Assembly: GCF_041146795.1 (NCBI RefSeq)
Contig: NC_135182.1
Span: forward strand, 312,501 to 376,500
Direction of reading: 5' to 3'
Length of the DNA stretch: 64,000 nt
Source of the DNA: Maylandia zebra
Taxonomy: Eukaryota; Chordata; Actinopteri; Cichliformes; Cichlidae
In this document: positions 11,418-51,659 of the stretch, piece by piece
Position numbering within the stretch: position 1 is the first letter of the stretch
Layout of the letters: the number at the start of each line of letters is the position of its first letter
Notes under the pieces: generated by a model
What the model was told of the DNA's origin: nothing
The model's database searches: none
The model's input: only the letters and a program-made list of their open reading frames with translations
Program-made: the position numbers and the translations under genes

Positions 11418-11475
11418 TGTGGAGAAAACTTTCTTAAGGTTCTCAGCATTAACCAGGACAAAGCTGTAATAGGTT

Positions 11476-11557
11476 GATTCAGACCTTTACAATTCCAGCT
11501 ACAGAACTTAAACGAGTGACCTGCTTGTTGATTATTAGTATTTAATTGCGATACCAT
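11476..11557 (-). pseudogene. L1 ORF2 N-terminus, cut off by the L2 insertion
   Basis: From ATG at 11,555-11,557 the minus-strand frame reads a short start and then FKFCSWNCKGLNQPI, the standard opening of an L1-type endonuclease ('..SWN.rGLN.p.Kr'). The frame is cut at the L2 edge; the next codons of the same motif (KRSKVLHYLQ) appear at 9,324 on the far side of the L2 insertion. Confidence 0.85.
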
Positions 11558-13720: not shown

Positions 13721-15840
13721 TCCATCCATCCGCTTTATCCGAGGCCGGGTCGCGGGGGCAGCAGCCTAAGCAGAGAGGCCCAGACCTCCCTCTCCCCAGC
13801 CACCTCCTCCAGCTTATCCAAGGCGTTCCCAGGCCAGCCGAGAGATATAATCTCTCCAGCGTGTCCTGGGTCTGCCCCGGGGCCTCCTCCCGGTGGGACA
13901 TGCCTGGAACACCTCACCCAGGAGGCATCTTTGTCAGATGCCCGAACCACCTCAGCTGGCTCCTTTCGATGTGGAGCTGCAGCGGCTCTACTCTGAGCCC
14001 CTCCCGGATGGCCGAACTTCTCACCCTATCTCTAAGGGAGAGGCCAGCCACCCTTCGGAGGAACCTCATTTCTGCTGCTTGTATCCGCGATCTCCTTCTT
14101 TCGGTCACTAACCACAGCTCGTGGCCATAGGTGAGGGTAGGGACATAGATCGACCGGTAAATTGAGAGCTTTGCTTTTACACTCAGCTCCCTCTTCACCA
14201 CGACGGACCGGTGCAGCGTCCGCATTACTGCAGCTGCAGCCCCAATCCGTCTCTCGATCTCCGGCTCCCTTCTCCCATCACTCGTGAACAAGACCCCGAG
14301 ATACTTGAACTCCTCCACTTGGGGCAGGAACTCATCCCTGACCCGGAGTGGGCACTCCACCCTTTTCCGGCTGAGAACCATGGCCTCAGATTTGGAGGTG
14401 CTGATCCTCATTCCCGCTGCTTCACACTCGGCTGCGAACCGTTCCAGTGCGAGCTGGAGGCCCTCACCCGATGAAGCCAACAGAACCACATCATCCGCAA
14501 AAATCAGAGATGAGATTCTGAGGCCACCAAAGTGAAAGCCCACTCTGCCACTTGGCTGCGCCTAGAAATCCTGTCCATAAAAATTATGAACAGAACCGGA
14601 GACAAAGGGCAGCCCTGGCGGAGCCCATCACCCACCGGGAACGAGTCCGACTTATTGCCGGCAATGCGAACCAAGCTCTTACAACGGTTGTATAGGGATC
14701 GAATGGCCCGTAGCAATGGGCCAGACACCCCATACTCCCACAACACCTCCCACAGGACACCCCGAGGGACACGGTCGAATGCCTTCTCCAAGTCCACAAA
14801 ACACATGTAGACTGGTTGGGCAAACTCCCATGTACCCTCAAGTATCCTGGAGAGGATAAAGAGCTGGTCCAGTGTTCCGCGACCAGGACGAAAACCGCAT
14901 TGTTCCTCCTGTATCCGAGGTTCGACTAGCGGACGAACTCTCCTTTCCAGCACCCTGGCATAGACTTTCCCAGGGAGGCTGAGGAGTGTGATCCCCCTGT
15001 AGTTGGAACACACCCTCCGGTCCCCCTTCTTAAAGATGGGGACCACCACCCCAGTCTGCCAGTCCACAGGTACTGCCCCTGATCTCCACGCAACATTGCA
15101 GAGGCGTGTCAACCAGGACAGCCCTACAACGTCCAGAGCCTTCAGGAACTCGGGGCGGACCTCATCAACACCAGGGGCTCTGCCACCAAGGAGTTGTTTA
15201 ACTGCCTCAGTGACCTCGCCCCCGGAAATTGGCGGGTCATTCCCCTCATCCCCAGACTCTGCTTCCTCCTCGGAAGACGTGTCAGTGGGATTAAGGAGGT
15301 CCTCAAAGTATTCCTTCCACTGCCTGACAATTTTCTCAGTCGACGTCAGCAGTGCTCCGCCAGCACTATACACAGTGCAGGTAGAGCACCGCTTTCCCCT
15401 CTTGAGACACCTGACGGTTTACCAGAATCTCTTCGAGGCAGTCCGAAAGTCTTTTTCCATGGCCTCTCCGAACTCCTCCCACACCCGAGTTTTTGCTTCA
15501 GCCACTGCCCGAGCCGCATTCCGCTTGGCCTGTCGATACCTGTCGGCTGCCTCCGGAGTCCCACAGGCTAACCAAGCCCGATAGGACTCCTTCTTCAGCC
15601 TGGTGTCTCCCTTCACCTCTGGTGTCCACCATTTGGTTCGGGGATTACCACCACGGCAGGCACCAACCACCTTGCGACCGCAGCTCAATGCAGCAGCTTC
15701 GGCAATGGAGACGCTGAACATGGTCCATTCGGACTCAATGTCCCCAGTCTCCCTCGGAATGCTGTTGAAGCTCTGCCGGAGGTGTGCGTTGAAGATCTCG
15801 CGGACTGGGGCCTCTGCTAGACGTTCCCAGCACACCCTCA
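13721..15840 (-). mobile_element. Rex3: Rex3 retrotransposon (RTE clade), 5'-truncated
   Basis: Minus-strand LINE that ends at 13,721 in GGATGGATGGA-type repeats, the usual Rex3/RTE tail. The interior contains GACAAAGGGCAGCCCTGG (around 14,601) and CACCACCCCAGTCTGCCA (around 15,045), matching the well-known primer sites used to map Rex3 in fish chromosomes. It starts at about 15,840 in the linker between endonuclease and RT, so about 1 kb of the 5' part is lost. Confidence 0.9.
13914..15840 (-). pseudogene. Rex3: Rex3 reverse transcriptase, frameshifted
   Basis: Three minus-strand frames continue one another: linker (15,847-15,419; WWTPEVKGDTRLKKESYRAW), RT (15,373-14,504; VDEVRPEFLKAL, VVVPIFKKGDRR, NYRGITLLSLPGKVYARVLE, CGFRPGRGTLDQLF, FVDLEKAFDRVPR, GLRQGCPLSPVLF) and the RT C-terminal part (14,543-13,914; SSLIFADDVVLLAS with the catalytic DD, FKYLGVLFTSDG, and the closing RWFGHLTKMPPG). 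Breaks lie near 15,400 and 14,525. The RT order and the FADD box are intact in sequence but not in frame, so the copy is dead. Confidence 0.9.
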
Positions 15841-19578: not shown

Positions 19579-19593
19579 GGTGTTGTGTCAAAA
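19579..19593. mobile_element. Left tip of an inverted-repeat MITE split by the giant element
   Basis: GGTGTTGTGTCAAAA here is the inverse of TTTTGACACAACACC at 35,484-35,498. The two are read as opposite ends of one small element whose remainder is at 34,650-35,498. Confidence 0.65.
19584..19593. repeat. 10-bp target-site duplication, left copy
   Basis: TGTGTCAAAA, repeated exactly and in the same orientation at 34,650-34,659, directly outside the other end of the giant element. Mutator-type transposases make duplications of about 8-11 bp. Confidence 0.7.
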
Positions 19594-19814
19594 GGACGAT
19601 CTGATATCCTCGTGTTGGCGTTGTTCCCACATCATCATAATTAATGTTGTTCCAGTTTCAACATTGCAGGTGACCAATCACCTTCTTGTGACGTCATTCC
19701 TTTGCGACTTCGAAATACCCGCCTTCGAGTATTTCGAAATACAAGTGAAGAAGCGAGAAACCGCCGCCTGTCCGCCGAATTTGAAGTCAATTTAGAATAC
19801 TTTTCTTTAATAAA

Positions 19815-19996
19815 CGGTAAGCATTATACATATGTTCCTCACTTGGCTTGCTGTTTGTTTGCTAGTGATAGACTACTTGACGACAGCATTAGCTAACCAG
19901 TGTTACGGTAAGCATTATACATATGTTCCTCACTTGGCTTGCTGTTTGTTTGCTAGCGATAGGCTACTTGACGACAGCATTAGCTAACCAGTGTTC
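19815..19996. repeat. Tandem duplication, 2 x 91 bp
   Basis: CGGTAAGCATTATACATATG... occurs at 19,815-19,905 and again at 19,906-19,996 with only a few differences (for example AGTGATAGAC against AGCGATAGGC). The right inverted end has just one counterpart, so the duplication arose in the left end. Confidence 0.9.
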
Positions 19997-20256
19997 TCTA
20001 GACCAGCGTTCCCCAACTTTTTGGGTGTTTCGTGGCCCGGGGGTTGGGTCAGGCAAAATTGCACTAGCTTCCCTGATCATTTTACAAACATAAGTGAAGA
20101 GAATCTGGACTAAAAGGCCTAGACTTATGGTTGTGTGCTGAATCTATGAATCAAACTATCACCTGGAAACATAATTAACTGGTCCATAGCTGTGAAACTT
20201 GACATGAGTTCTTGATTCTATGGAGATTAACAGTAATCCAGATATTTACAAATTTG

Positions 20257-20447
20257 TCCAGGGACATCGCGTAAATGTTGTCCCTGGGACATCGCGTAAA
20301 TGTTGTCCCTGGGACATCGTGTAGATGTTGTCCCTGGGACATCGTGTAAATGTTGTCCCAGGGACAAAGTGTAAATGTTGTCCCAGGGACATCGTGTAGA
20401 TGTTGTCCCAGGGACATCGTGTAGATGTTGTCCCTGGGACATCGTGT
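20257..20447. repeat. 25-bp minisatellite in the left inverted end (~7.5 units)
   Basis: Units of the form GGACATCGTGTAGATG plus TTGTCCCTG. Each unit begins GGGACA and ends TGTCCC, so every unit can fold on itself. The right inverted end carries the same array (33,809-33,987) in reverse. Confidence 0.95.
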
Positions 20448-20734
20448 GATAGCTTGTTAATAATGGAATGAAAATTATTGATTGTTATTAACTTGTGAAA
20501 AAGAAGTGTAACAAATCCACATGTTATGTTCTTACACCCTTACAGAAACTGTGACTCCTTCACAATGTCAGGTAAATGTCAACTCATGTTGAATAATCAA
20601 CCAATCAAGCCTTTTATTATCACATGCAATGTTACACGTACAACTGCAATGAAAATTTCACCCCCTTCTGACCATACATATATTGCTTAAACATCCCATT
20701 GGGAAGGAAGGTCAGAAAACAATTTAATTCATAG

Positions 20735-22873
20735 ATGAGGGGAGAGGAGGAGAAAAAAGAACTACAACCAGACAAAGCTCCTAGAAGACTGAAATGGATG
20801 ATGGTTGCAGCATGCAAAAAGAAAATGATATCTGTTGACTACAGCATATGCTTTCTCACAGATTACCTTGTGGGAGTAGCTGGACCAAACTCTATTGGTA
20901 TTTCAAGTTTGAAATCCCTGTTTGACCAGACAAACATTTCAGATGAGGTACCTCTTGACATAAAAATCCTTTTATGTTGTCATAAAACTAATGTTAAATT
21001 CTGCTTTAAATACACTTTATTGTACAATTTACTTAATGAATCGTATTCCTTAGTTCTGTTTTTATTTATATGTATTTATTTATTTGTTTTATAAGGTAAT
21101 AGATGGCCTAATCTATTTGCAGTGTGAGGTATGTTGAAAAGCTTGTTTGATCATAATGACATAGCATGTTTACGTTTTTTGTAATGTATTTGAAAACATA
21201 AGTGTATTTATGTTATTTTTATAGAATTTCCCTCACATTTATCCAATACCAAGCCAAATCACTGGAAAAATTTTGGATGGGTCCACAAGAGCACAAAGTG
21301 CATACTTTTTGAAGGTATGACTTGGACTGTGGTAACTATGTTCTTATCACAAAGGGTTTATAAGTTGCCACTATAAACAAACAGCGTTTTCCAAAATTGA
21401 AGCCTTGTCTGAAGAACCTGAAAAATACCTTTCTGAAACCTTTTCTGTGTAAAGACTTGCTCAAAAGCAATGCACACAGATTAAAACATTTCTGTCTTGG
21501 CCAACTGATAAAGAAAACCAAAAATTGAGTGGTGCGTGTTGAGTCTGTGGTCTTGATTTGTTTCGTACACACTATAGAACTTAATTAATGTAAACAAAAA
21601 ATGACACTTTCTATATGTTTGTGTATCTGCAGAATTAATTACAAGTCTCACCTGACAAGCTTTCGCAGTTTTGCAGTGTCATTCTTGACAGAAAAACATA
21701 CTTGTCACATTATTTTTATTTCCAGAAAAACATCTTTCAGATGTATGAGAAATTGATTGGAGCCTGTCTGGAAAACGGCAGCCACTGGACCTTGTTTGTA
21801 AGTTGCACAGATTTTGCACTCTCTCTAGTGCATGATACTTTTCAGTGTCCCTCATTAGGAAAGCTCAAGGCCCAAGCCTACCATATCCATCTTTTTACAA
21901 AACAGTTTTGTGACATACCCAAGAGGACCATAGCCTATATGAATTCATTTGGCGAGTCGGAGGTCAGAAAAAGTGCGGTGTTGAAAAACTGGAGGTAATT
22001 AATTAACATATTTAACATAACATATTTAATTTAATTGAAATCATTACCGAACGTGGTTATTGATTTCTCTATATGCTTTTTATTTGTAATAACTGCCATC
22101 TCTCAGCTCATTTGCTTCAGCAAGAGGCTGCACTGGAGAGTGGACTTTGTCACATGTGAGCCACCCACATCAACAGGATGGGAACTCATGTGGAGTGCAT
22201 GTCATAATGGTACTGAAAACTATAGCTTTAACCTATATAAGTAATGTTTACATTTTTGTCTATTCAGTTTTTAAAGCCTTAGAGGCAGGATGGTAAAATC
22301 TCAATTTTTGTTGTAGATTGAACCATTTCAGCAGTAATGCTTTGGCTTTGGTTGCTCTATTTTTTTTTCTCGGGGGGTGTAAAAAAAAAACCCATTTCTT
22401 TGTTAATCTAATTCTTTTTGTTCTTTTTTTTTTTTTCTTCGTCAATTATTAGTTTCCCCAATCTCTCATTGACGGTAAAACACAAGTGGAGGAGTACAAC
22501 ACTGAAATCACAAAGCTCAGGTCCCGACTTTGCCACTACTTATTTTCCTCAATAGGTAAAGATAAAATTAGCCGCCTTCTTTTTCTCTAACATTGGAAAA
22601 TGTAACTTGTACTTAAACAAATTATATTTTGCAGAACGAACTAGGAAGTGCAGTCAGTGCTGGTGTGTGATTGCAGCCAAAGACCGGGTACACTATGACA
22701 TGTCCTTAGCCATATAGATTGTTTATATAATGGACTTTGTTCATTTGTTTTTTGTTTGTTTATTTCTTCTTCTTTTTTTTTTTTTAATTCACAGGTGCAG
22801 TGCCAGAAATGTGGTGCATACAAGCACATGCGTTGTTCAAAGTCTGTTTGTGGCATCTGTATCTTCTGTGAGA
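20735..22873 (+). CDS. Ulp1-like (C48 family) cysteine protease with Cys-rich tail, 8 exons
   Basis: Exons with matching phases and GT-AG borders: 20,735-20,947; 21,225-21,314; 21,726-21,797; 21,906-21,994; 22,125-22,209; 22,453-22,555; 22,635-22,687; 22,795-22,873 (about 260 codons). Catalytic order of the SUMO-protease fold: GSHWTLF (His, 21,783-21,785), IAYMNSFGE (the usual Asp position is Asn, 21,942-21,944) and QQDGNSCGVHV (Gln and nucleophile Cys, 22,189-22,191). The last two exons add CSQCWC and CQKCGAYKHMRC-type cysteine clusters, probably a zinc-binding module. Such proteases cut SUMO-like or other Gly-Gly bonds; several transposon groups carry them, role unknown. The exon with the Cys uses the second AG of CAGCAAG. 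A start before 20,735 (ATGTCAG|GTAAAT near 20,565) is possible but its phase does not fit. The end is lost or displaced by the Tc1 insertion at 22,889. Confidence 0.75.
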
Positions 22874-22888
22874 GTAAGTCACAATATA

Positions 22889-23563
22889 CAGTTGTGGTCA
22901 AAAGTTTACATACACTTGTAAAGAATAGAATATAATGGCTCTACCGAGTGTCCCGTTATTTCTAAAACTCTGATTTTTCTCTGATAGAGTGATTGGAACA
23001 GATACTTCTTTGTCACAAAAAACATTCATGAAGTTTGGTTCTTTAATGACTTTATTATGGGTTAACAGAAAAAAGTGATCACATCTGCTGGGTCAAAAAT
23101 ATACATACAGCAGTGCTAATATTTGGTTACATGTCCCTTAGCCATTTTCACTTCAATTAGGCGCTTTTGGTAGCCATCCACAAGCTTCTGGTTGAATCTT
23201 TGACCACTCCTCTTGACAGAATTGGTGCAGTTCAGTCAAATTTGATGGCTTTCTGACATGGACTTGTTTCTTCAGCATTGTCCACATGTTTTCAATGGGG
23301 TTTAAGTCAGGACTTTGGGAAGGCCATTCTAAAACCCTTATTCTAGCCTGATTTAGCCATTCCTTTACCACTTTTGATGTGTGTTTGGGGTCATTGTCCT
23401 GTTGGAACACCCAACTGCGCCCAAGACCCAACCTTCGTGCTGATGATTTTAGGTTATGTTGAAGAATGTGAAGGTAATCCTCCTTCTTCATTATCCCATT
23501 TACTCTCTGTAAATCACCAGTTCCATTGGCAGCAAAACAGCCCCACAGCATTATTATGCCGCC
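22889..23563 (-). mobile_element. Tc1/mariner element, half only
   Basis: Begins at a TA with CAGTTGTGGTCAAAAGTTTACATACAC..., a Tc1-type terminal repeat. On the minus strand (23,563-23,160) it encodes the second half of a Tc1 transposase: GGIIMLWGCFAANG, SWVFQQDNDPKHTSK (second Asp of the DDE site), VLEWPSQSPDLNPIENMW (third acidic residue region). The first half and the other terminal repeat are absent: the element stops where the LINE begins at about 23,564. The coding part has no stop, but the element cannot move itself. Confidence 0.9.
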
Positions 23564-24811
23564 TACAGGGAGGAGGTGGATCGTCTGGCTGAGTGGTGCG
23601 ACACAAACAACCTGCTGCTTAACACCGAGAAGACCAAGGAGCTCATCGTGGACTACAGGAGGAATGCTGACCCACATCCACCCATCCACATTAAGGGGAT
23701 GGCTGTGGAGCGTGTGAGCAGCTTCAAGTTCCTGGGAGTCCACATCTCTGAGGATCTCATCTGGACGACCAACTGCTCCAAGCTGGTCAAGAAGGCTCAC
23801 CAGCGCCTCTTCTTCTTGAGGACTCTGAGGAAGAACCACCTGTCCTCAGACATCCTGGTGAACTTCTATCGTTGCACCATCGAGAGCATCCTGACCAACT
23901 GTATAACAGTCTGGTACGGGAACTGCTCTGCCTCGGACTGGAAGGCGTTGCAGAGGGTCGTGAAAACTGCCCAGCGCATCGCCGGAGCACCACTTCCTGC
24001 CATAAAAGACATCTACAGGAAGCGGTGTCTGAAAAGGACTGGGAAAATCATCAAAGACCCCAGTCACCCATCACATGGACTCTTCACCCTCCTGCCCTCT
24101 GGGAGGCGCTACAGGAGCCTCCGGACTAAGACCACCAGGTACCGGAACAGCTTCTTCCCCACAGCTGTCAGACTCCTGAACTCTGCCTCCTGACATCTGA
24201 CCCACGTTAAAACATGGACTGAACATACACACACCCACAATGGACAACTGTACCCTCAAACACACAATAATAACATGGACTGAACCACCACTCACAACCA
24301 CCAGCACTTTATATAGCCTCTGTAGAATTATCCACATATCTCACTTATCTTAACTGCACTACTGTATAGCTCTGTGTAAATAATCATTCTGTACATACGA
24401 TAATTTTTAACCCTACAACTGTTTACAACTTGCACAGTTCCCATTTCTGTATAGCTGTATATCTCAGATTCTGTAAAGTTATTTATTTCATATTCTGTAT
24501 AGTTTTTCATATTTATATCCTGTTCATAGCCTGTACATAGCTTGTACTCACTACAGCCTGTACATACTTATAGTTATAGAATATTCACAACATACTTCAT
24601 ACCGTGTACATTATAACATACCATAATAGACCCATTTCTGTAGTATACTCACATATCTATATTATTGCTAATATATATTGTAATATATCTATATCACTAA
24701 AGCACTTCTGGATGGATGCAAACTGCATTTCGTTGCCCTGTACCTGTGCATGTGCAATGACAATAAAGTTGAATTCTATTCTATTCTATTCTATTCTATT
24801 CTATTCTATTA
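23564..24811 (+). mobile_element. 5'-truncated L2/CR1-like LINE with (ATTCT)n tail
   Basis: Starts inside the RT coding region and ends in seven or so ATTCT units (about 24,773-24,811). The 3' untranslated part (24,194-24,772) is rich in TATA/TGTA words and carries ACAATAAAGTTGAATTC just before the tail, serving as cleavage signal. It sits against the broken Tc1 on its left. Confidence 0.85.
23573..24193 (+). pseudogene. LINE reverse transcriptase C-terminal part
   Basis: About 205 codons in one open frame: EEVDRLAEWCDTNNLLLNTE (just after the RT catalytic box), KTKELIVDYRRN, FKFLGVHISEDL, NCITVWYGNCSA, the QRVVKTAQRIAG helix and the closing LLPSGRRYRSLRTKTTRYRN and FFPTAVRLLNS. The catalytic RT motifs themselves and the endonuclease are missing by 5' truncation, so it codes for no active enzyme. 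Confidence 0.85.
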
Positions 24812-26344
24812 GTGGACCTCGTAGGTTTTTATTCTGTGCAATTGGTAATTGACTGGGTTTAATTTAGTGGCCTGGAAAACAGGCCGGAGGGGTCTGGTCA
24901 TTTTAACCCCCTAAGACCCGAAATCTTCCATGGCATGCATTTTTAATTTCTCTTTGATATTTGGGCCGATTGGAACCCGATGAATGTAAAAAGAAAGAAT
25001 TACCAGATTTTTTTTTTTTTTTACCTAATTTTTGTTTCTGAGAAAAATGAGAGCCACATATGAGGACATTCATTTGAAATTTCGATAGAACAGTTGCAGT
25101 ATAATGTCTTCGTAACTGTAACTCAGGCACTTGTTGATCAAGATTTAGTATTTTGGTCTAAATAACCCAAAATCTGATGTCCACATATGTGGATGCCAGG
25201 CTGGAGTAAAGTGTTAGAGCTATTTATACCTATGTAAACTTTTATACACTGGTTTTTACCTGTCTTGTTTCAGAAAGGTTTAAAAGGGTAATGTCCACAG
25301 TTTATTTGTTTATTTATTTATTTGTTTGAATTCAACATATTTTATTAAAGTAATTGAGCTTGAACACAGAAAAAACTGAATCAAATAATCATAAAATCAA
25401 ATCACTTGCACTATACTGAAGTCTAATCTACTCTGAGCTAATGCCGGTTTCCAACACTAATGATCGGGTGAAGGAGAGAGATGAGGGTGTGCACGGCCAC
25501 TGGTGCTCTTATCCCTGTTCTGTGTGATACAATCCAACAGGAAAGCAGTCAAACCCTTGGACATTAGCCAAGTTAACGTTCACAAATATATACACACAGA
25601 GGAACTCTGAGCCCCAATGTCAGCATTAGCACAAACATGCCACTTCATACCAAATCTCAGTGTGAGGTCAGGTGTTAGTCTCATTCCATTATTCTGGCTA
25701 TATTTTCTTACTCATCATTACTATTAAACTTATACTTAAGACTAACTATTAACAAAATCACACCCCAATAACTCATTTATTACACTTTGTATTTAATCAT
25801 AAAAAGGCTGGATGTTGAAACCTTTTACTTCTATTTTGTATGAGCCGGGGGTTCTCAACAGCTGATACTCTATGTCCAAAAAGTGACAGGTATCGTTTTA
25901 TGGAGCAAAAAACTTAAGAGCGCATATTTTATAAATAATACCAACAATTACAAATGCAGACCTTTAATAGTAATAAGTAATCCTTTATTTATAATGCATA
26001 GCAATATAAAAATAGTAACATATGAAAATATTACAATGGGCACAGATGAATTTGTATCAAAAACAGCAACCAAGCCAAAGTAATGAATAACACACATAAA
26101 TAACAACTGCTTGAGAGAGCAAACAATTTCTTTTCATCTGTTCCTTGGCAGAAAGTTAAGACAGCTATTCAGCTTTAGGTTTCAATAAACAGAAGTAATG
26201 GATGCAGTCCCTTTGAAATGTCACACAAAAGTCTACTTGTGCATATACTTAGCTTTAACTCTTCTCTTTTTTGTTTTGTATTCCAAAAGGTTTTCATTTT
26301 CTCCAGAGGATGTCTCTCTTTCAGTGGTTATCGACTGTTCACAT
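24812..26344. other. Non-coding space between the two convergent genes of the giant element
   Basis: No recognisable protein. A MITE-like edge, TTAACCCCCTAAGACCCG, occurs at 24,903, but I cannot find its partner end. The last exons or 3' ends of both convergent genes may reach into this area. Confidence 0.4.
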
Positions 26345-29300
26345 TCATTTTGTTAGGGTTGGAATGTCGATGCTGGCCGAACGTTTCTTGCTAGAATGCA
26401 ATGGCCTAATTTTGCGTGCATTATCTGTCGTCTTTATTTCGTACTGGCATATACTTTTGCCTACTTCTTGTTTTGTTTTTAAGACATTTGTATGCAGTTC
26501 ATCTATCATTGCAGTAATGCCCTCTGGAATGAATGCCCACTGTTTAACTGTGTCTAAAACAGCATTTAGTTTTCCAACCGCATCTTCTGTGCATTTTTTG
26601 TCTGTGCTTTCAACTACAGGAGTGTCATTCAAAGTTGATAGAGGACTTTTCAGAGAGTTTTTCATTTGTTTAAAATGGCTACAAGCCACCTTCAAGCAAG
26701 CACATGTGTTATAGTGAGAGAACGTACAACAAGTGCACTGAAGTGTTTCAGCCGATGCAAAAAACCACAGCTTTCCAAACAAACTTGGCATTTTTATCAC
26801 TTTCAAGTCCTCACAGTGTACAAAGTAATGCCTTTCTTTCACTGCAATTCTTGCCAAGGTAGAAATGTCTGTTTCCATGTTTGGATAGATGTCATTGTCA
26901 ACCTCTGCTAATTTTGCAAGTAACACTAGATGCTTGAAAAGAAGTCCTCGTAAGCCATATGTACAGTTGCAGTAGGACTCAACAGGGCAGACATCATACA
27001 CTATGTCTTCTCTTGACTCAGATGGGACTTGATATGCATTAACTCCATGGCTGTTCTTGACTGTAATTTTAAGAGCCCAACCACTTTCCATCAGTCTTGA
27101 AGCAGAGTCTGAAACTTGAGACAAGGTGTCAGCAAACCTGTTTTTCATGCGGCCCACATCTTGCAGGGTTTTTATGACTGAGAAGTAGTCGTCGGCCTTC
27201 CCTAGGAGCACTTCAATCAGATCATCCAGACGCCTATTCGTGTAGCCAGATAAAAACTGGTATTTCAGGCGGTGGAAAAATCTGAAAAACAGTTATTTGA
27301 AATGATTAGTAACTGTAATTGAAGGAATTTAAAGTTTAAATCAAGACTGTATTATTTTTTTAAAAATTGGAATACCTATTGCACAGGTCTTTTATAAAGG
27401 AATGCTCTGTGCCGGTTTAGCTGATTTAGGCAAATCCACCTACTCTGTTTTTTGTTGTGATAACATAAAAAACGCTGCTAGAATTTAAAGGATTTGCCTA
27501 AAACCTGTTCTGGCAATGACATGACGAACCTACTCAGTTTAGCCTCTTGGATTAAAGCATAATATCTTTTTTTCAGCAATACAATCGAATGAGGTCAAAA
27601 TAATAAATCATACCTTTCAATCACATTGTTTGTTTCAGAACGAGCGTGACTGAAGCGACGGCCGTAGTCACACCACATGTGGCCAATGCCTTCCCAGTGC
27701 TTCTGAAAATACTGGCACACCAAAGGGTATTGCTTAAATGTCTGGCAGAACTCTGCTGATGTGGCTTTAAAGTCGTCCTCCTAAGAGAATTGGATGCAAC
27801 AGAATATATTTCAATCCATTTAACAGACCTATTGAAATCTTTAATATTATGTATTGAAGCCCTTTTCCTTTTATTGAATAACATTAAGAATTTTAAGTTA
27901 TTAATAATATGTCGTCTTTTTGTATTAAGAAGCAATTATTTCTTACCTTACAATGGCTAAGAAGGAACACTAAACCTATAAGCATATTTGGTTTCAGCAT
28001 CTGTCTGTGAAAGAATCCCACTCACAAGTTCTCCTGCACAGTGGGTGACACAATGATGGTCTGCACAGCTTAAGTACTTGTTTTGATAAGCAAGATAAGA
28101 AGCCAGTTTTAGAAATTGTTTCAAAAATCTATTTTGTATCTCTCTGTAACTTTTTTTAGCAACTGAAAGTTATTATGCTCTTAGTGTAATCAAGAAATCA
28201 AAATGTGAAATAGACAAATTACACTTACAGATGTGCAAGCTTTCAGCTTACAAAAGAAAGAAATGATTTAATTTCTCTTTTGGGTGTTAGAAAGCCCATG
28301 GACCCCGGACTCTGATTTTGAAAGCCATCGATTAACAGCCTGTGAATGTAAGAGAAAAAAAGTTAATCTGGAGAGAGAGACAGAGGAGCAGCTGTACAAA
28401 AAGCATAAAAGAAAGCTGACGTCCAAAAATAACTTTGTCACTCACTGGACAAGAGGACCTGTGCATTACAGAAATCAACCAGGCAAACGTATTTTTAAAT
28501 GTTAAAAAGAGCTTTGGGAAGCAGCCACCAGAAGATGAGTGCACTGTGGTCTTAAATGGATGGACAAAGTCACTCAACATTTTATCCCTTTATATTCATT
28601 AACCTGAGTAGGTGAATATCACAATGAGGCAAATCATAACAACAGGACCCTGTTGTAAAAATGTGTTTCAGGTCCATCTTAGACAACGTGAAAAGAAAAC
28701 AATGTGGTTTACCTGCAAGACATGGTACCAGCATAGAAGGATAGCTGACTCTGGAAAAACCTTCTGCAAAGCATTTATTTCCGCAAAGTCTTTGTCAACC
28801 ATAAATGCTCTACAGAAAAAAAGAAAACACTAAATGAGATTAAACAGTATGAAAATGTTTTTGCTATCTCAAAGCACCACTTCAATGCCAAATTAAACAT
28901 TTCAACTCACAAGTAGATATATAAAATACTGCATACAGCCTATAGGAATAACTTTAACAACTGGAAAGGAAAGTTTTTGCAGCCCATGCTGCAGCTATAG
29001 CATTAGATTCTGGCATGTTATAACTTTTTTGAAAAGGAATTATTTCAAAATTAATAGCTGTCAATGTATTATTTACCTCGGGGAAGTTGTGAAAAGCTCA
29101 CAAACTATTCCAAGAACAGTTTCCAGGGTTTTCTGACTTTCGTTGCTGACAATAGCATAGGCCACAGGGACTCCATGCCCATGATCATCTCTTACAACAA
29201 GTGTGAATAAGGGAAATGAATACTGGTTAACGCAGTGCGTGGTGTCAACAAATACTAACTGTTTTGCATAGTTCTCCATGTTTGATTTCATTACAGGTGT

Positions 29301-29822
29301 CTGCAAAACAATCATTAGTTCTTGGTCAGATGTGTATGGTTGATAGAAGAGAACATGTTCTTGATGTTTTCCATTAAGTAAGGTATGTACACATTGACTG
29401 TCTCCACAGTTAAAGTGCTTCTTCCTCATCATGCAGGTTCTAACACTGTCAATGTCACGTGGTGTGACAAAATGCTCTCTGTTGTGAAGATCTCTGTGTC
29501 CATGTTCTTTGGCCCATTTATGACATTCGGTTAGTATGATGGCTGGCTTAGTTCCAAGGGAAAGCAGTTCCTCAATCTTCCTCCTCAAATCACTGGAAAT
29601 ATTGTTGAAATGTGCGTCTTTTGGGTCCGAAGGATCATGCCCATCATGCTTATCATATGTACGCTGCACGATGACTGTGTGGTCTTTCCAACATTTGAGT
29701 ACTTTAAATGAAACATAGGCCTTACAGCCCACTGCTCTGTAGCTGTTTCGACTTTTTTTTTCCAGCTCTGATGCAGTTGAATTTGTAATAGTCTCTTTTC
29801 CTGTCTTTACCTGAGGCCACAT
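26345..29822 (-). CDS. MULE transposase with SWIM-type motifs, multi-exon
   Basis: Minus-strand exons with compatible phases: 29,822-29,077; 28,809-28,713; 28,339-about 28,270; 28,004-27,947; 27,780-27,614; 27,281-26,345 (stop). N-terminal part resembles a FAR1/FLYWCH-type zinc domain (CKAYVSFKVLKCW, DKHDGHD). The DDE core is readable: VFVDTTHCVNQYSFPLF (Asp, 29,244-29,246), FMVDKDFAEINALQKVFP (Asp, 28,794-28,796) followed by LLCWYHVLQ, and SHARSETNNVIERFFHRLKY (Glu, 27,634-27,636). The C-terminal exon has SWIM-like clusters (SYCNCTYG...LFKH and LQCTCCTF...CSHFK). The enzyme would cut the element's ends. One donor (end of the 28,339 exon) is not visible and an in-frame stop follows, so this junction may be broken. 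The true N-terminus lies at 33,316, separated by a LINE. Confidence 0.8.
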
Positions 29823-29838
29823 TTAAACATTTATATTT

Positions 29839-32800
29839 CCAGTGCGCATGCGCCAACCAGCGTGCAGCCTGTTACAGTCGCTCCTGCTTTTCTCTTAGTT
29901 TAGCTCTTTTTTCTTACGTATTCTTTTTTTTTCTGACTTGTATTTTCCTCCGTTTTCTATCTCTTACTCAATCATGTGGATTGAGAGAGTTTTTGTTCTT
30001 CTGGTGGCCGTGGAACTGTTACTTTTATCATGGAACGGGACCGCGGCACATCTCCTACACGCACGGACTGTTTACTCCAGAGATCAGCTGATCGCCCTGA
30101 TGCCGGCCGGCTCGCTGGCCAGGCCCGCAGAAGTACCAGCTGAAATTTGGAGGAAAACACATCGGGGATGCAGAGGTCAAGGACAGAAGAGAAGAAAAAA
30201 GGTGACGGTGAGACAGCGGAGGCTCGAAGCGAGGAGGAGGTTTAAACCGTGTCTGCCGTCTATCGTGATGGGAAATGTGCGATCGTTGGCAATTAAAATC
30301 GACGAGCTCTCAGCACTGGTACGGAGTCAGAGGGAATACCGAGAGTGTAGCCTGATGTGTTTCACCGAATCATGGCTGCACCAGGTCATTCCCGATGAGA
30401 ATGCTTCCGTGGAAGGCTTCCACACTGTTCGGGCGGACAGGGACAGCATCGCTAGCGGTAAGCGTAAAGGAGGTGGGCTTGCTGTTTTAGTTAACAACCG
30501 GTGGTGTAACCCTGCCAACATAACAATCAAAGAAAGGATTTGTTGCCCGGACACTGAACTGTGTGCTGTTGGACTCAGGCCGTATTATTTACCCAGGGAA
30601 TTCTCTCACGTCATCTTGGTGGCTGTTTATGTTCCCCCCTCTGCTAACCCCACAGCTGCATGTGACACTATCCACTCTGCCATAGCTCGGCTACAGACTC
30701 AGCACCCGAGTGCCTTTATTGTGATCTCGGGTGACTTCAACCATGTATCACTGGACAATACACTAACAACATTCAAACAATATGTGGACTGTCCCACCAG
30801 GGGAGAGAAAACTTTAGACTTACTGTATGCTATCGTCAAGGATGCATACAGCTCCTCCTCCCTCCCCCCACTTGGTAGGTCAGATCATAACCTGATTCAC
30901 CTCACCCCCCGCTATGTGCCAATTGTGAGGAGGGAACCTGTGACCACCAGGACTGTCAGGAGGTGGTCAGAGGAGGCAATAGCGGAACTACAGGGCTGTT
31001 TCGAGGTGACCGACTGGGAAACACTCTGTGAGCCTCACGCCGAGGACATCAATGAGCTTACTGAGTGTATCACAGACTACATAACTTTCTGCACCGACTC
31101 CATTGTTCCAGCTCAGACTGTTCATTGTTACCCAAATAACAAGCCGTGGGTGACTAAGGACATCAAAGCCCTCCTCAACAACAAGAAGAGGGCTTTCAGA
31201 GGGGGCAACAAAGAGGAGGTGAGGAAGATCCAGGTGTTACTAAAGGACAAGATCAGAGAGGCTAAGGACAATTACAGGAGGAAGCTGGAGTGGAAACTCC
31301 AGCAGAACAGCATGAGAGAGGTGTGGAGGGGCATGAAGACCATCACTGGATTCAGGCCAACCAACAGCAGGGGAACTGAGGGAGGTGAGAATAGAGCCGA
31401 CGAGTTGAATCTGTTTTTCAATAGATTCGACACCACAGTGTCTGCTCCCACCCCCACAACCTCACCTGCAGTCAGCCTGGAATCCAGAGCCACACCACTG
31501 TGCCAGCCTCTCTCTTCACATGTTGCCTCCTGTGAGATTCCTGACACCCCTCCCCCACCCATCACCTTCACTCAATACCAGGTTGAGATGCAAATGAGGA
31601 GACTTCACTCAGGCAAGTCTGCTGGACCAGACGGAGTGAGTCCCCTCGTCCTCAAGACCTGTGCCCCCCAGCTGTGTGGAGTCTTTCATAAACTGTTTAT
31701 GCTGAGTCTGAGTCTGCAGAGGGTCCCGGTGATGTGGAAGACATCATGCCTCGTCCCTGTACCAAAGACGCCTCGTCCCAGTGGCCCCCAGGATTACAGG
31801 CCCGTGGCACTGACCTCCCACATCATGAAGACCCTGGAAAGGCTCATCCTGGACCAGCTGCGACCCATAGTAAGACCACATCTGGATCCCCTTCAGTTCG
31901 CTTATCAGCCTCGTCTCGGAACAGAGGACGCCATCATCTACCTGCTCAATCGTGTCTACACCCATCTGGACCAGCCGGCGAGCACTGTGAGGGTCATGTT
32001 TTTTGACTTTTCTAGTGCTTTCAACACCATCAGGCCGACCCTCCTGGGTGATAAGTTAGCAGCGATGCAGGTGGATGCTTCTCTGGTGTCCTGGATTGTT
32101 GATTACCTGACAGGAAGACCACAATATGTACGTCTCCCACAGTGTGTGTCTGACAAGGTGATTAGCAACACAGGGGCACCACAGGGGACTGTCCTCTCCC
32201 CCTTCCTCTTCACCCTCTACACCACAGACTTCAGCCACTGCACAGAGACCTGCCATCTTCAGAAGTTTTCTGATGACTCTGCGGTGGTTGGATGCATCAG
32301 CAGGGATGATGAGACAGAGTACCGGGCTGTGGTCGACTCCTTTGTCACGTGGTGTGAGCAGAATCATCTGCAGCTCAACGTGGCAAAGACCAAGGAACTG
32401 ATCGTGGACTTCAGGAAGACCAGGAAACACTTGACCCCTGTTTCAATCCAGGGGGTCAGTGTGGACATTGTGGAGGACTATAAATACCTTGGAGTACACA
32501 TTGACAATAAACTGGACTGGGCTAAAAACACCACAGCACTTTACAGGAAGGGCCAGAGTCGTCTCTATTTTTTGAGGCGACTGAGGTCCTTCAGCATCTG
32601 CCAGAAAATGCTGAGGATTTTCTATGAGTCTGTGGTGGCCAGTGCGATCCTCTATGCTGTTGCATGCTGGGGGAGCAGGCTGAGGGTCGCAGATGCCAAC
32701 AGACTTAATAAACTGATCCGTAAGGCCAGCAATGTTGTGGGGATGGAGCTGGACTCCCTCAAGGTGGTGTCGGAGAGGCGGATGCTGTCCAAGATAAAGA

Positions 32801-33165
32801 CAATGTTGGATAACACCTCCCACCCACTCCATGACATGTTGGTCAGCCACAGGAGCTCGTTCAGTGAGAGACTGAGATTACCGAAAAGCACCACTGAACG
32901 ACACAGGAAATCATTCCTGCCTGTGGCCATCTCCCTGTACAACGCATCCACTTAACACACGGTTTGCTGCTACAGCTACACATGTTTCTTTTCCAAATAT
33001 TTATTTATAAGTGACTTATGTATGTATGTATGTATGTATATGTATATATTGTACTATTCTTAGTTAGCATATTGTCTGTCTTGTCTTAATGTTGGTTTAA
33101 AATGGAGCACTGTAACAAAAAATAATTTCCCCCAGGGATCAATAAAGTATTCTGATTCTGATTAT
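29839..33165 (+). mobile_element. Full-length L2/CR1-group LINE, intact frame
   Basis: Starts near 29,839 after TTTATAT and ends in TCTGATTCTGATTATA at about 33,165; the flanks share TTATA, a short target duplication. A short leader (29,840-29,937) precedes one long frame; the 3' part has (GTAT)n at 33,018-33,040 and GATCAATAAAGTATTCTGAT before the tail. It is inserted in the 5' coding part of the MULE transposase gene, in the opposite direction. Confidence 0.85.
29938..32955 (+). CDS. LINE endonuclease-reverse transcriptase, 1,005 codons, intact
   Basis: One open frame. Residues ~100-330: AP-endonuclease (GNVRSLAIKIDEL, CFTESWL with the catalytic Glu, VAVYVPPSAN, ISGDFNHV, and GRSDHNLIHL). 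Residues ~570-800: RT (KSAGPDGVSPLVLK, MWKTSCLVPVPK, DYRPVALTSHIMKTLE, FAYQPRLGTEDAI, MFFDFSSAFNTI with the first Asp, GAPQGTVLSPFLF, FSDDSAVVGCI with the DD). The end is LRLPKSTTERHRKSFLPVAI. FSDD in place of FADD/YADD is seen in this fish group. A basic stretch at residues ~70-105 precedes the endonuclease; no separate ORF1 is present. The protein would nick DNA and copy its RNA at the cut. With no stop and a tail intact, the copy may be recent. Confidence 0.92.
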   Translation: MYFPPFSISYSIMWIERVFVLLVAVELLLLSWNGTAAHLLHARTVYSRDQLIALMPAGSLARPAEVPAEIWRKTHRGCRGQGQKRRKKVTVRQRRLEARRRFKPCLPSIVMGNVRSLAIKIDELSALVRSQREYRECSLMCFTESWLHQVIPDENASVEGFHTVRADRDSIASGKRKGGGLAVLVNNRWCNPANITIKERICCPDTELCAVGLRPYYLPREFSHVILVAVYVPPSANPTAACDTIHSAIARLQTQHPSAFIVISGDFNHVSLDNTLTTFKQYVDCPTRGEKTLDLLYAIVKDAYSSSSLPPLGRSDHNLIHLTPRYVPIVRREPVTTRTVRRWSEEAIAELQGCFEVTDWETLCEPHAEDINELTECITDYITFCTDSIVPAQTVHCYPNNKPWVTKDIKALLNNKKRAFRGGNKEEVRKIQVLLKDKIREAKDNYRRKLEWKLQQNSMREVWRGMKTITGFRPTNSRGTEGGENRADELNLFFNRFDTTVSAPTPTTSPAVSLESRATPLCQPLSSHVASCEIPDTPPPPITFTQYQVEMQMRRLHSGKSAGPDGVSPLVLKTCAPQLCGVFHKLFMLSLSLQRVPVMWKTSCLVPVPKTPRPSGPQDYRPVALTSHIMKTLERLILDQLRPIVRPHLDPLQFAYQPRLGTEDAIIYLLNRVYTHLDQPASTVRVMFFDFSSAFNTIRPTLLGDKLAAMQVDASLVSWIVDYLTGRPQYVRLPQCVSDKVISNTGAPQGTVLSPFLFTLYTTDFSHCTETCHLQKFSDDSAVVGCISRDDETEYRAVVDSFVTWCEQNHLQLNVAKTKELIVDFRKTRKHLTPVSIQGVSVDIVEDYKYLGVHIDNKLDWAKNTTALYRKGQSRLYFLRRLRSFSICQKMLRIFYESVVASAILYAVACWGSRLRVADANRLNKLIRKASNVVGMELDSLKVVSERRMLSKIKTMLDNTSHPLHDMLVSHRSSFSERLRLPKSTTERHRKSFLPVAISLYNAST

Positions 33166-33316
33166 AATGTCCATGAAGAGTTAATGAGTTCAATTTTTCT
33201 AACACAACACTGAATGGGTCCTCCTGGCATTGTGACACATGCACACAAAGTTGTGTATCTTTTCCAGTTCTTTTTTTTTCGTCATTCAGAACACTTCTTC
33301 TAATTATATCGTCCAT
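33166..33316 (-). pseudogene. N-terminal piece of the MULE transposase gene, cut off by the LINE
   Basis: From ATG at 33,316 the minus frame gives MDDIIRRSVLNDEK, then TQLCVHVSQCQEDPF and LEKLNSLTLHGHY, stopping at the LINE tail. Its place, strand and direction fit the start of the transposase gene that resumes at 29,822 beyond the LINE. The reading frame does not pass simply from one side to the other, so either an intron or an indel lies at the junction; I cannot decide which. Confidence 0.55.
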
Positions 33317-33431
33317 TTCTGGTGGAAAAATAACGAAGGTTTAATTAGTCAATATTCATTAATTCATTTTAACTTGTTTTGGGGTTTTTTGCAATACAAT
33401 GTAAATATTAAATAAAATATTAAAAATATAT

Positions 33432-33699
33432 TGTAACGGTGGACCCAAGAAATACCAGCCGGAGCGACTTTGACAATGCAGAACTTTTTATTAAACTCGG
33501 GGTTGTACGTGGACACATATACTCCCGCGCTCTCTTTCTCTGCTGTCACGTCCGTCTCCTCTCCGTCTGTCACTGCCAACATATAAAGAGACACAATCAC
33601 TGTCAGATCCCAGCACACCTGTTCACCCCGCCCCTGCGCCGCCCCGGGAGCTCACTGCGTCACCCCTCCTCTGCAGCTGGCCAAGGACCACACCCACGC

Positions 33700-33705
<6 letters not shown>
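33432..33705 (-). mobile_element. Solo LTR of a Ty3/gypsy-like retrotransposon
   Basis: Read on the minus strand the 274-bp block starts TGTGTGGCGTGGG and ends CCACCGTTACA (TG...CA), with a TTTATATG box and TTTAATAAAAAG as poly(A) signal in the right order. Both sides carry TATAT (33,427-33,431; 33,706-33,710), a 5-bp duplication. No internal region is present, so the two LTRs of the insert recombined to leave one. Confidence 0.65.

Positions 33706-33764
<59 letters not shown>
33706..33764. repeat. (AT)n microsatellite
   Basis: Nearly 30 AT units start exactly at the right-hand TATAT duplication of the solo LTR. Confidence 0.97.
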
Positions 33765-33808
33765 AAACAAACAGGGGCTAAAAGAAGCTAAACTTTCATA
33801 TGGTATGT

Positions 33809-34649
33809 CTCTGGCAACTTCTACATGATGTCCCAGGGACAACATCTACACGATGTCCCAGGGCAACTTCTACATGATGTCCCAGGGACAACATTTACAC
33901 GATGTCCCTGGGACAACATTTACGCGATGTCCCAGGGACAACATTTACGCGATGTCCCTGGGACAACATTTACGCGATGTCCCAGGACAAATTTGTAAAT
34001 TTCTGGATTACTGTTAATCTCCATAGAATCAAGAACTCATGTCCAGTTTCACAGCTATGGACCAGTTAATTATGTTTCCAGGTGATAGTTTGATTCATAG
34101 ATTCAGCACACAACCATAAGTCTAGGCCTTTTAGTCCAGATTCTCTTCACTTATGTTTGTAAAATGATCAGGGAAGCTACTGCAATTTTGCCTGACATTG
34201 TTATGACAGCTTTATTCACCTGTACATTTATTATATATCATAATATATTGACGGGGGAGGTATATTCACCTGTACTTTCATAATAAATCATAATACATTG
34301 ACACGCAATTCTCTGTCTGGAGAACACTGGTTCGCAAGTAGCCTATCACTAGCAAACAAACAGCTATCCATTTCAAGGAAAACATGTATTATGCTTACCG
34401 TTTATTAAAGAAAAGTATCTTGAGAGGAATTGAAATTGCTGGATTGGACGACAAAAGGTTGAAATTGCTGGATCGGCGGACAAAAGGCGATTTCTCGAAG
34501 AACATTTCTTTTTGTAAGGCGGGTATTTTTCGAAGTCGCAAAAGTATGACGTCACAAGAAGGTGATTGGTTACTTGTAATGTGGACCCTGGAACAACATT
34601 TATTATGATGATGTGGGAACAACGCTGACACGAGGAAATCAGATCGTGC
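33809..34649. repeat. Right long terminal inverted repeat of the giant element
   Basis: Inverse of 19,594-20,459 with indels. From the outside in: GCACGATCTGAT, the GTTGTTCCCACATCATCATA block, CTTCTTGTGACGTCAT, AATAAACGGTAAGCAT, GCTGTTTGTTTGCTAGTGAT, and at 33,809-33,987 the 25-bp array. A stretch at 34,190-34,310 is unlike the left end and holds two imperfect copies of an ATTCACCTGTAC...ATCATAATA unit. Confidence 0.8.
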
Positions 34650-34659
34650 TGTGTCAAAA
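34650..34659. repeat. 10-bp target-site duplication, right copy
   Basis: TGTGTCAAAA, the exact partner of 19,584-19,593, directly after the right terminus of the giant element. Confidence 0.7.
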
Positions 34660-51222: not shown

Positions 51223-51659
51223 CCTGACGAAGGTAGGCACTTGTCTTTTTATTTTATAAGACTGTGTTATGCCTTTCTCAGTGATCCACATAGAAACGGG
51301 ATACGCTGACGAGGCCTTCTTCAGTGGCCCACATAGTAACAAGTGGGATACACTGAGGAGCCTTCTTTAGTGGCCCACATAGAAACACAGGAAGTTGCCT
51401 GTTGTTTTGTAAATAAAAGCAGAAAGGACACAGGAAGTTGCCTGCTGTCATAAACTAAGAAGTTGCTCACCAGCAGAAAGGACACAGGAAGTTGCCTGGG
51501 GTCATAAAACGAGAAGTTGCTCGTTAAAAAGTGAGAAGTTGCTCACTAAAAACATAAAATTGCTAGCAAAAAATCAAGTAACCTCAGGTGTGCCACAGCA
51601 AAAATAGAAACTAACTTAAATCCTTCAAAGCGTCTAAACCCCTCTGGAAATCACTGACC
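51223..51659 (+). other. Leader of the inner provirus with internal repeats
   Basis: Contains repeats of CACAGGAAGTTGCCTG (three times between 51,389 and 51,500), AAGTTGCTC (several) and GTGGCCCACATAG (twice). RNA packaging signals would be expected here, but none can be proven. Confidence 0.7.

What the first reader, a model, noticed from the sequence alone, without database searches (positions are those of the whole stretch)
19594..34649. A 15-kb two-gene Mutator-type transposon in a fish, with 0.85-kb inverted ends
Seen: long inverted ends, a perfect 10-bp direct repeat TGTGTCAAAA immediately outside both ends, and inside them two convergent spliced genes, a MULE transposase with all three DDE residues readable and a Ulp1-like protease. 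Known: Mutator elements have long inverted ends and 8-11-bp duplications; some plant MULEs also carry Ulp1-like genes. Inference: this is an autonomous or recently autonomous giant MULE of teleosts in which transposase and protease travel together. I do not know a description of this pairing in fish.
Basis: partly seen in the sequence, partly recalled or inferred. Interest (0 to 1): 0.92.

Follow-up and report, generated by a model that had tools for sequence, protein, structure and literature searches.

The report
Cichlid Mutator transposon with AP-2 protease
A fish genome carries a recently active jumping gene of the Mutator kind, poorly documented in backboned animals, which encodes both the enzyme that moves it and a protein-cutting enzyme joined to a piece that resembles a gene-control protein of its host.

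Summary
Long inverted ends at 19594 and 34649 are flanked by TGTGTCAAAA; the insertion interrupts a dispersed repeat, and three other copies of that repeat are uninterrupted with one TGTGTCAAAA. It is a Mutator-like element (MULE): Pfam MULE 4.7e-19, D-D-E present. The genome (most likely Maylandia zebra) has 27 loci with transposase sequence; 11 of 14 insertion sites read have perfect 9-10 bp duplications. The genes travel together: Ulp1 lies beside the transposase at 22 of 27 loci; another exon of gene 2 is found at four of the other five. One 11,177-bp copy has both genes open.

Corrections: the native element is about 11 kb. The window copy is swollen by nested inserts, its transposase is split by a LINE, and it lacks the end of gene 2. 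In complete copies gene 2 is a Ulp1 protease, a zinc finger and a TFAP2-like (AP-2) domain that shares one exact intron position with host TFAP2 genes.

Ulp1-bearing MULEs are known in plants, hydra and lancelet; my searches turned up no AP-2 fusion. What gene 2 does is inferred.

The parts
19584..19593 (.). left target site duplication TGTGTCAAAA
   Evidence: single in three uninterrupted copies of the target repeat
34650..34659 (.). right target site duplication TGTGTCAAAA
19594..20456 (+). left terminal inverted repeat (about 0.86 kb), starting GGACGATCTGAT
33790..34649 (-). right terminal inverted repeat
20250..20447 (+). eight 25-bp units with palindrome TGTCCCWGGGACA inside the left repeat; number varies among copies; candidate transposase-binding array (inference)
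33815..33994 (-). about seven 25-bp units inside the right repeat
20565..20571 (+). gene 2 exon 1 (ATGTCAG)
20735..20947 (+). gene 2 exon 2; the form in most NCBI proteins read starts at 20862 (MSDYLVG...)
21096..21128 (+). gene 2, 33-bp exon (VIDGLIYLQCE)
21225..22209 (+). gene 2 Ulp1 protease exons 21225-21314, 21726-21797, 21906-21994, 22107-22209; His, Gln and Cys of the active site in place, Asn where Ulp1 has Asp
22453..22873 (+). gene 2 exons 22453-22555, 22635-22687, 22795-22873 with the Cys/His-rich zinc finger
22889..24805 (.). Tc1 (DDE_3) and LINE pieces standing where other copies have the TQT-repeat and AP-2-like exons of gene 2; those exons are missing here
26233..27281 (-). transposase exon 5 with SWIM-like CxC...CxH (one Cys is Phe in this copy); ends early here relative to open copies
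27614..27780 (-). transposase exon 4, catalytic E (ETNNVIERFF, completed by exon 5)
28229..28339 (-). transposase exon 3
28713..28809 (-). transposase exon 2, second D (MVDKDFAEINAL) and CWYH
29077..29841 (-). transposase exon 1, 3' part, with first D (FVDTTH)
33162..33316 (-). transposase exon 1, 5' part with the start codon, cut off from the rest by the LINE
29842..33161 (+). nested LINE with a 1018-aa frame containing reverse transcriptase; not part of the native element
33427..33708 (.). further insert absent from the other copies

Best explanation
A recently active two-gene Mutator-like (MULE) DNA transposon of a cichlid fish. Shown: the ends, 9-10 bp duplications, paralogous empty sites, a MULE transposase with D-D-E, physical linkage of the two genes, copies about 1% apart, and one copy with both genes open. 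Inferred from MULE biology: the transposase binds the long inverted ends (the 25-bp palindromic units are candidate sites), cuts the element out and joins it to a target cut with a 9-10 bp stagger. Shown by sequence: gene 2 combines a Ulp1/C48-type cysteine protease, a zinc finger and a TFAP2-like domain whose last intron sits exactly where host TFAP2 genes have one, as expected if the domain was captured from host genomic DNA. Inferred, with lower confidence (about 0.35): gene 2 helps transposition or escape from silencing by removing SUMO from proteins at places to which its AP-2-like part brings it. The window copy is inactive for both genes.
For: Ends and duplications; uninterrupted target repeat with one TGTGTCAAAA in 3 of 4 copies fetched; MULE and ZSWIM1-3 RNaseH-like domains at 4.7e-19 and 6.7e-22, D247-D308-E427; linkage at 22 of 27 transposase loci, 26 of 27 with the AP-2 exon probe; transposase open in 3 of 11 copies and gene 2 in 2 of 10, both in the C12:31.08M copy; its gene 2 protein is identical to one recorded from Astatotilapia calliptera; C48 5.9e-7 and yeast Ulp1 as best solved relative; AP-2 above Pfam's cut-off in 7 of 7 proteins tested; alignment scores 83-105 against host TFAP2 with shuffle maxima 47-61; same Lys-Gln intron, same phase.
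Against: 3 of 14 sites lack a perfect duplication, one of them showing none. The SWIM match is below cut-off. The AP-2 match is remote: no AP-2 structure was hit by sequence, the middle host intron is absent and the first is displaced by 2 nt, and a PF03299 scan of the genome listed only host TFAP2 loci. Asn replaces the catalytic Asp. Ulp1 exons show 9 nonsynonymous to 2 synonymous unique changes, so no sign of constraint there. No expression, transposition or structure data; structure prediction never ran.
Confidence: 0.9

Rival explanations
1. It is a Zisupton/KDZ element, the fish DNA transposon superfamily that also carries a Ulp1 domain, and not a MULE.
For: Recalled: Zisupton is about 11 kb, occurs in fish and encodes zinc fingers and a Ulp1 domain.
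Against: Pfam finds MULE and ZSWIM1-3 domains in the transposase and lists no KDZ model at E up to 1; duplications are 9-10 bp, not 8; two separate convergent genes, not one. The Zisupton paper is not held, so its features are recalled.
Confidence: 0.02
2. Gene 2 is a captured passenger (Pack-MULE style) without a role for the element; it is carried because it lies between the ends.
For: MULEs are known to carry gene fragments (PMC6431247, passages; recalled). Gene 2 is open in only 2 of 10 copies; Ulp1 exons show 9 nonsynonymous and 2 synonymous changes; Asn replaces the catalytic Asp.
Against: Gene 2 sequence accompanies 26 of 27 transposase loci and an old relic with 71-81% identity already has the AP-2 exon; one copy's gene 2 protein is identical to one recorded from another species; relatives are recorded in Oreochromis, Sarotherodon and Simochromis with AP-2 still above cut-off in those tested.
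Confidence: 0.3
3. The AP-2-like domain is not homologous to TFAP2; the similarity and the shared intron are chance.
For: Remote similarity; no PDB hit for this region; only one of three host introns matches exactly.
Against: Pfam E-values 3e-8 to 5e-6, all above cut-off; scores 11 to 15 standard deviations above shuffles against four host genes; exact intron position and phase.
Confidence: 0.06
4. The flow went the other way: TFAP2 genes arose from an ancient element of this kind.
For: A shared intron fits transfer in either direction; relatives of the transposase occur in hemichordates.
Against: TFAP2 is old and conserved in animals (recalled), whereas the AP-2-bearing element protein was found under cichlid names only, bar one record labelled ferret.
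Confidence: 0.03

Closest known systems
Ulp1-carrying MULEs of plants (KAONASHI of Arabidopsis; MULEs of melon, rice, grapevine)
   Same: MULE transposase and a ULP-type protease gene in one element, in opposite orientation in KAONASHI and in some grapevine families (PMC2528002, passages)
   Different: Plant hosts; KAONASHI lacks inverted ends; no AP-2-like domain is mentioned in the passages seen; here a vertebrate and about 0.8-kb ends
Ulp1-encoding Mutator elements of hydra and lancelet (Repbase reports)
   Same: Animal MULEs with a Ulp1 domain; a PHD finger is shown beside Ulp1 in the cited alignment (PMC2836005, passages)
   Different: Known to me only through that citation; no AP-2 part mentioned; the 2019 survey could not find a MULE transposase in the lancelet sequence given in another report (PMC6446971)
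Phantom and the other animal MULE groups of the 2019 survey
   Same: MULE transposase, 8-10 bp duplications, ends up to 613 bp, some with SWIM (PMC6446971, section 6)
   Different: No Ulp1 in the table and none in vertebrates; the present element is longer and has a second gene
Zisupton (KDZ superfamily) of fish
   Same: Fish DNA transposon of about 11 kb with a Ulp1 domain (recalled)
   Different: Other transposase family, 8-bp duplications and a single gene (recalled) against 9-10 bp and two genes here
Ginger1 transposons
   Same: Ulp1, sometimes with PHD, joined to a transposon (PMC2836005, passages)
   Different: Integrase-like transposase in one protein with Ulp1
TFAP2 (AP-2) transcription factors of the host
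   Same: AP-2 domain and one exact intron position
   Different: Remote, shortened, fused to a protease, inside a transposon
ZSWIM1/ZSWIM3 host proteins
   Same: The model PF21056 of their RNaseH-like domain is the best Pfam match of the transposase
   Different: Host genes; whether they derive from this lineage was not tested

Membership tests
MULE / Mutator superfamily | MULE-type DDE transposase | tested here: met
   PF10551 4.7e-19, above cut-off; D247, D308, E427
MULE / Mutator superfamily | 8-11 bp target site duplication | tested here: met
   11 of 14 distinct sites perfect (five of 10 bp, six of 9 bp), two with one mismatch, one without; empty-site copies
MULE / Mutator superfamily | long terminal inverted repeats (frequent, not universal) | tested here: met
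   787 columns at 96.7% in the C22 copy
MULE / Mutator superfamily | SWIM zinc finger (frequent) | tested here: inconclusive
   CxC...CxH motif at residue 532 but SWIM 10.1 bits, below 19.6
MULE / Mutator superfamily | transposition by the encoded transposase | not testable with these tools
   needs an assay
Zisupton / KDZ | KDZ transposase domain | tested here: not met
   no KDZ model among Pfam matches at E up to 1
Zisupton / KDZ | 8-bp duplication (recalled) | tested here: not met
   9-10 bp
Ulp1 / peptidase C48 | C48 catalytic domain | tested here: met
   PF02902 5.9e-7, above cut-off; yeast Ulp1 4.7e-7 with a profile
Ulp1 / peptidase C48 | His-Asp-Cys triad with Gln | tested here: inconclusive
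   His, Gln and Cys present; Asn at the Asp position in the alignment to 1euv
TFAP2 (AP-2) domain | sequence match to the family profile | tested here: met
   above cut-off in 7 of 7 proteins tested, E 3.2e-8 to 4.8e-6
TFAP2 (AP-2) domain | intron positions of host genes | tested here: inconclusive
   one of three exact with phase, one within 2 nt, one absent
TFAP2 (AP-2) domain | AP-2 fold, DNA binding and dimerisation | not testable with these tools
   structure prediction never ran; binding needs an assay

The most novel reading that the evidence does not exclude
A vertebrate MULE has taken a piece of its host's TFAP2 developmental transcription factor and fused it to a SUMO protease, making a self-encoded factor that is brought to TFAP2-type DNA sites or to TFAP2 dimers and strips SUMO there, so that the element can be expressed or can insert where TFAP2 acts (germ line, neural crest).
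Probability: 0.25. Interest if true: 0.93.

Novelty: new variant of a known kind. Interest (0 to 1): 0.77.

Why it matters
A 2019 survey judged vertebrate MULE reports misidentified and listed as open whether MULEs are absent from vertebrates (PMC6446971, section 6 whole and a conclusions passage). Against that, automated teleost surveys do list MULE-MuDR in zebrafish, medaka and stickleback and MuLE consensus sequences in FishTEDB (PMC4746887 and PMC6404401, passages). The present family answers the question for one cichlid with transposase, ends, duplications, empty sites and a copy with both genes open. It also joins a SUMO-pathway protease to a host transcription-factor domain inside a transposon, so the suspected role of Ulp1-type proteases in transposition (PMC2836005, passage) becomes testable in a vertebrate, in a fish group with many closely related species.

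Tried and rejected
Zisupton/KDZ: rejected on transposase family and duplication length. The first gene-2 model, without the 33-bp exon and with a longer exon 2, gave an open frame in one copy; it was replaced by the form of the NCBI proteins, under which that copy is not open. A possible extra transposase exon between exons 3 and 4 was set aside because the frame meets a stop before exon 4. A suspected 12-bp duplication around the nested LINE was dropped after reading the junctions. The AP-2 region found no solved structure. The relic at C21:33.49M shows no recognisable AP-2 or DDE motif in its frames with the patterns used. Paper searches for fish or cichlid MULEs, Ulp1 in MULEs, ZSWIM, Zisupton and AP-2 fusions: in the listings I saw no description of this element; most listed papers were not opened and the library lacks most subscription papers. 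Not held: two papers asked for by DOI. Not answered: genome searches, of which the Ulp1 exon, transposase protein, AP-2 family, AP-2 exon and empty-site queries were answered later; structure prediction 54, 60, 67, 71, 74, 78, 81, 85, 89, 91, 95, 97, 100, 102, 105, 110, 111, 115, 118, 120, 122, 125, 127, never run.
Full report
What was checked. The two ends, the inverted repeats and the direct repeat are at the stated coordinates. The element's first and last bases are 19594 and 34649, with TGTGTCAAAA just outside both. Joining the two flanks and searching the genome found other copies of the same dispersed repeat without the element: at C1:36.10M the match runs through the junction over all 214 bases at 94%. 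Of four such copies fetched, three hold exactly one TGTGTCAAAA and one is altered at that place. So 19594-34649 is one insertion with its target duplicated.

The family. The window lies in a 962-Mb genome in 63 contigs. Two contig lengths equal those recorded for Maylandia zebra proteins, so it is most likely that species. A 750-base transposase exon has 29 matches, 22 of them full-length at 98-100%, the window included. An outer-end probe has 41 matches, with only 40 of 552 candidates scored; a Ulp1 exon has 29. Grouping the matches within 20 kb gives 33 clusters: 22 with transposase and Ulp1, 5 with transposase only, 3 with Ulp1 only, 3 with an end only. By inspection all 22 contain a convergent pair; three (C11, C12:31.05M, C18) have an extra Ulp1 copy. 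A probe for the AP-2 exon has 25 matches, all within these clusters by inspection, and adds gene 2 to 4 of the 5 transposase-only loci. The fifth is at a contig end (C49), as is one of the three Ulp1-only clusters. Two gene-2-only loci remain; one, at C21:5.34M, has two inverted Ulp1 copies, no transposase match and a perfect 10-bp duplication, which suggests movement in trans.

Insertion sites. Of 14 distinct sites read at both ends, 11 have perfect duplications (five of 10 bp, six of 9 bp); C8 and C6:5.94M have one mismatch in nine; C3:53.65M has none (those compared by eye). The other loci were not read at both ends. Two pairs of copies (C3:56.66M/60.78M, C12:31.05M/31.08M) share both flanks and the C15 pair shares at least the right one; each pair counts once.

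Native size and state. Comparison with nine copies and one contig end shows 29842-33161 and 33427-33708 to be extra in the window copy, and 22889-24805 to replace about 1.86 kb present in most others. Six copies with paired ends and no large excess measure 10.7-12.0 kb; all paired ends lie 9.4 to 17.8 kb apart. In the window the transposase is split in its first coding exon by a LINE with a 1018-aa frame, the frame before SRNSYRAV differs from that of open copies, and gene 2 lacks its last three exons. In the family the transposase is open in 3 of 11 copies (the cut-off C49 copy not counted) and gene 2 in 2 of 10, one of which (C4) was not fetched to its end. The copy at C12:31.08M has both genes open, is 11,177 bp long and carries a perfect 9-bp duplication. 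Mean pairwise divergence of the transposase exons is 1.2% (0.13-4.18%) over nine copies.

Gene 1. Five exons with canonical borders code for 776 aa. Pfam: ZSWIM1-3 RNaseH-like 6.7e-22 and MULE 4.7e-19. D247, D308 and E427 fit a DDE triad; a CxC...CxH motif at 532 resembles SWIM but scores below cut-off. Of 19 protein relatives, one is from Maylandia zebra (99% over 61% of the query); Alosa has 64% over 61%; most ostariophysan fish (loaches, carps, a characin, a knifefish) 41-51%; hemichordates 31-37%. In a tree the cichlid protein pairs with Alosa (98/98) within a fish group; Alosa's branch is flagged as long, so this is provisional. A search with the translated exon found 34 matches, all to this family or to decayed pieces, hence no second MULE family at that sensitivity.

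Gene 2. In the form of the NCBI models it has 13 exons and 508 aa in the C12 copy, letter for letter the same as a protein recorded from Astatotilapia calliptera. Its parts: a Ulp1/C48 domain (PF02902 5.9e-7; yeast Ulp1 the best solved relative) with His, Gln and Cys in place but Asn for Asp; a Cys/His-rich finger whose spacing resembles a short PHD (my reading; no Pfam family above cut-off); one to five RDEGTQTE units, which resemble LC8-binding motifs (recalled); and an AP-2-like C-terminus. PF03299 is above cut-off in the C22 protein and in all six cichlid proteins tested; two of those six lack a C48 match because an exon set is skipped. Local alignments to four host TFAP2 sequences score 83-105 with shuffle maxima of 47-61. 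The last AP-2 intron falls at the same Lys-Gln junction and in the same phase as in two host TFAP2 genes read on both sides; the first is within 2 nt; the middle host intron is absent. This points to capture of host genomic DNA. Against it, the region hits no solved AP-2 structure, and a PF03299 scan of the genome listed the host TFAP2 loci only, not the element's single exons. Searches with the whole protein and with its first 245 residues found relatives under cichlid names only, apart from one record labelled ferret within a tilapia cluster (the first scored only 7,999 candidates). A relic at C21:33.49M, 71-81% identical in pieces, has the AP-2 exon and transposase pieces in the same layout, so the pairing is older than the present burst; no clear protein motif is left in it.

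Selection. Unique changes among nine copies: transposase 36 nonsynonymous and 17 synonymous (ratio 0.55); gene 2 31 and 16 (0.52); Ulp1 exons 4-7 9 and 2 (1.15); AP-2 exons 19 and 10 (0.54). The numbers are small and mix decay with selection.

How it probably works. Shown: it moved as a unit, makes 9-10 bp duplications, and a copy with both genes open exists. Inferred: cut-and-paste by the transposase acting on the long ends; the palindromic 25-bp units, 3 to 18 per end where the end was fetched, are candidate binding sites. For gene 2 I favour a helper or anti-silencing role through SUMO removal, placed by the AP-2-like part (about 0.35); a passenger role (0.3) is not excluded.

Comparison with what is known. 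ULP genes in MULEs are known in plants, also in opposite orientation (PMC2528002, passages), and Ulp1 domains in hydra and lancelet Mutators (PMC2836005, passages). The 2019 survey found no MULE transposase in vertebrate reports and lists the matter as open (PMC6446971, section 6 whole and passages), while automated surveys list MULE-MuDR in teleosts (PMC4746887, PMC6404401, passages). An arthropod survey gives lengths of 1.4-10.0 kb (PMC13359780, abstract start in a listing; one passage). In the listings of my ten searches I saw no description of a fish MULE with Ulp1 or of an AP-2 fusion. It is a MULE by transposase, duplications and ends, and a new variant of the Ulp1-bearing MULEs.

Noticed in passing
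window 51615-57803 (+) and 60855-62027 (+): Long open frames that read like retroviral gag and pol; listed only, nothing done with them.
   Followed up: no
window 9906-11486 (-) and 13914-15418 (-): Reverse-transcriptase-like open frames of LINEs (my reading).
   Followed up: no
window 29899-32955 and 23513-24193; P0034, P0035: Pfam's ALKBH8_N model (PF09004) matches the C-terminal part of LINE proteins, and UniRef names such proteins AlkB homologue 8; probably a naming error.
   Followed up: partly
P0022, P0029, P0026: Transposon-encoded proteins are recorded as 'dystrophin' and 'epidermal growth factor receptor kinase substrate 8' in Sarotherodon, and one cluster includes a record labelled ferret.
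   Followed up: no
G000:C21:5337592-5348269: Element with two inverted Ulp1 copies, no transposase match and a perfect 10-bp duplication: a palindromic derivative that seems to have moved in trans.
   Followed up: partly
gene 2 in L009/L010 (C22) and L060 (C12): The 24-bp coding repeat RDEGTQTE varies from one to five units among copies; TQT resembles LC8-binding motifs (recalled).
   Followed up: partly
G000 C3 (56.66M, 60.78M), C12 (31.05M, 31.08M), C15 (3.02M, 3.09M): Pairs of copies with shared flanks, i.e. segmental duplications of the insertion.
   Followed up: partly
window 19814-19995: A 91-bp tandem duplication in the left end, 97% alike.
   Followed up: no
P0014-P0018: A second, distant transposase lineage shared by hemichordates and Astyanax; the join is on long branches.
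   Followed up: partly
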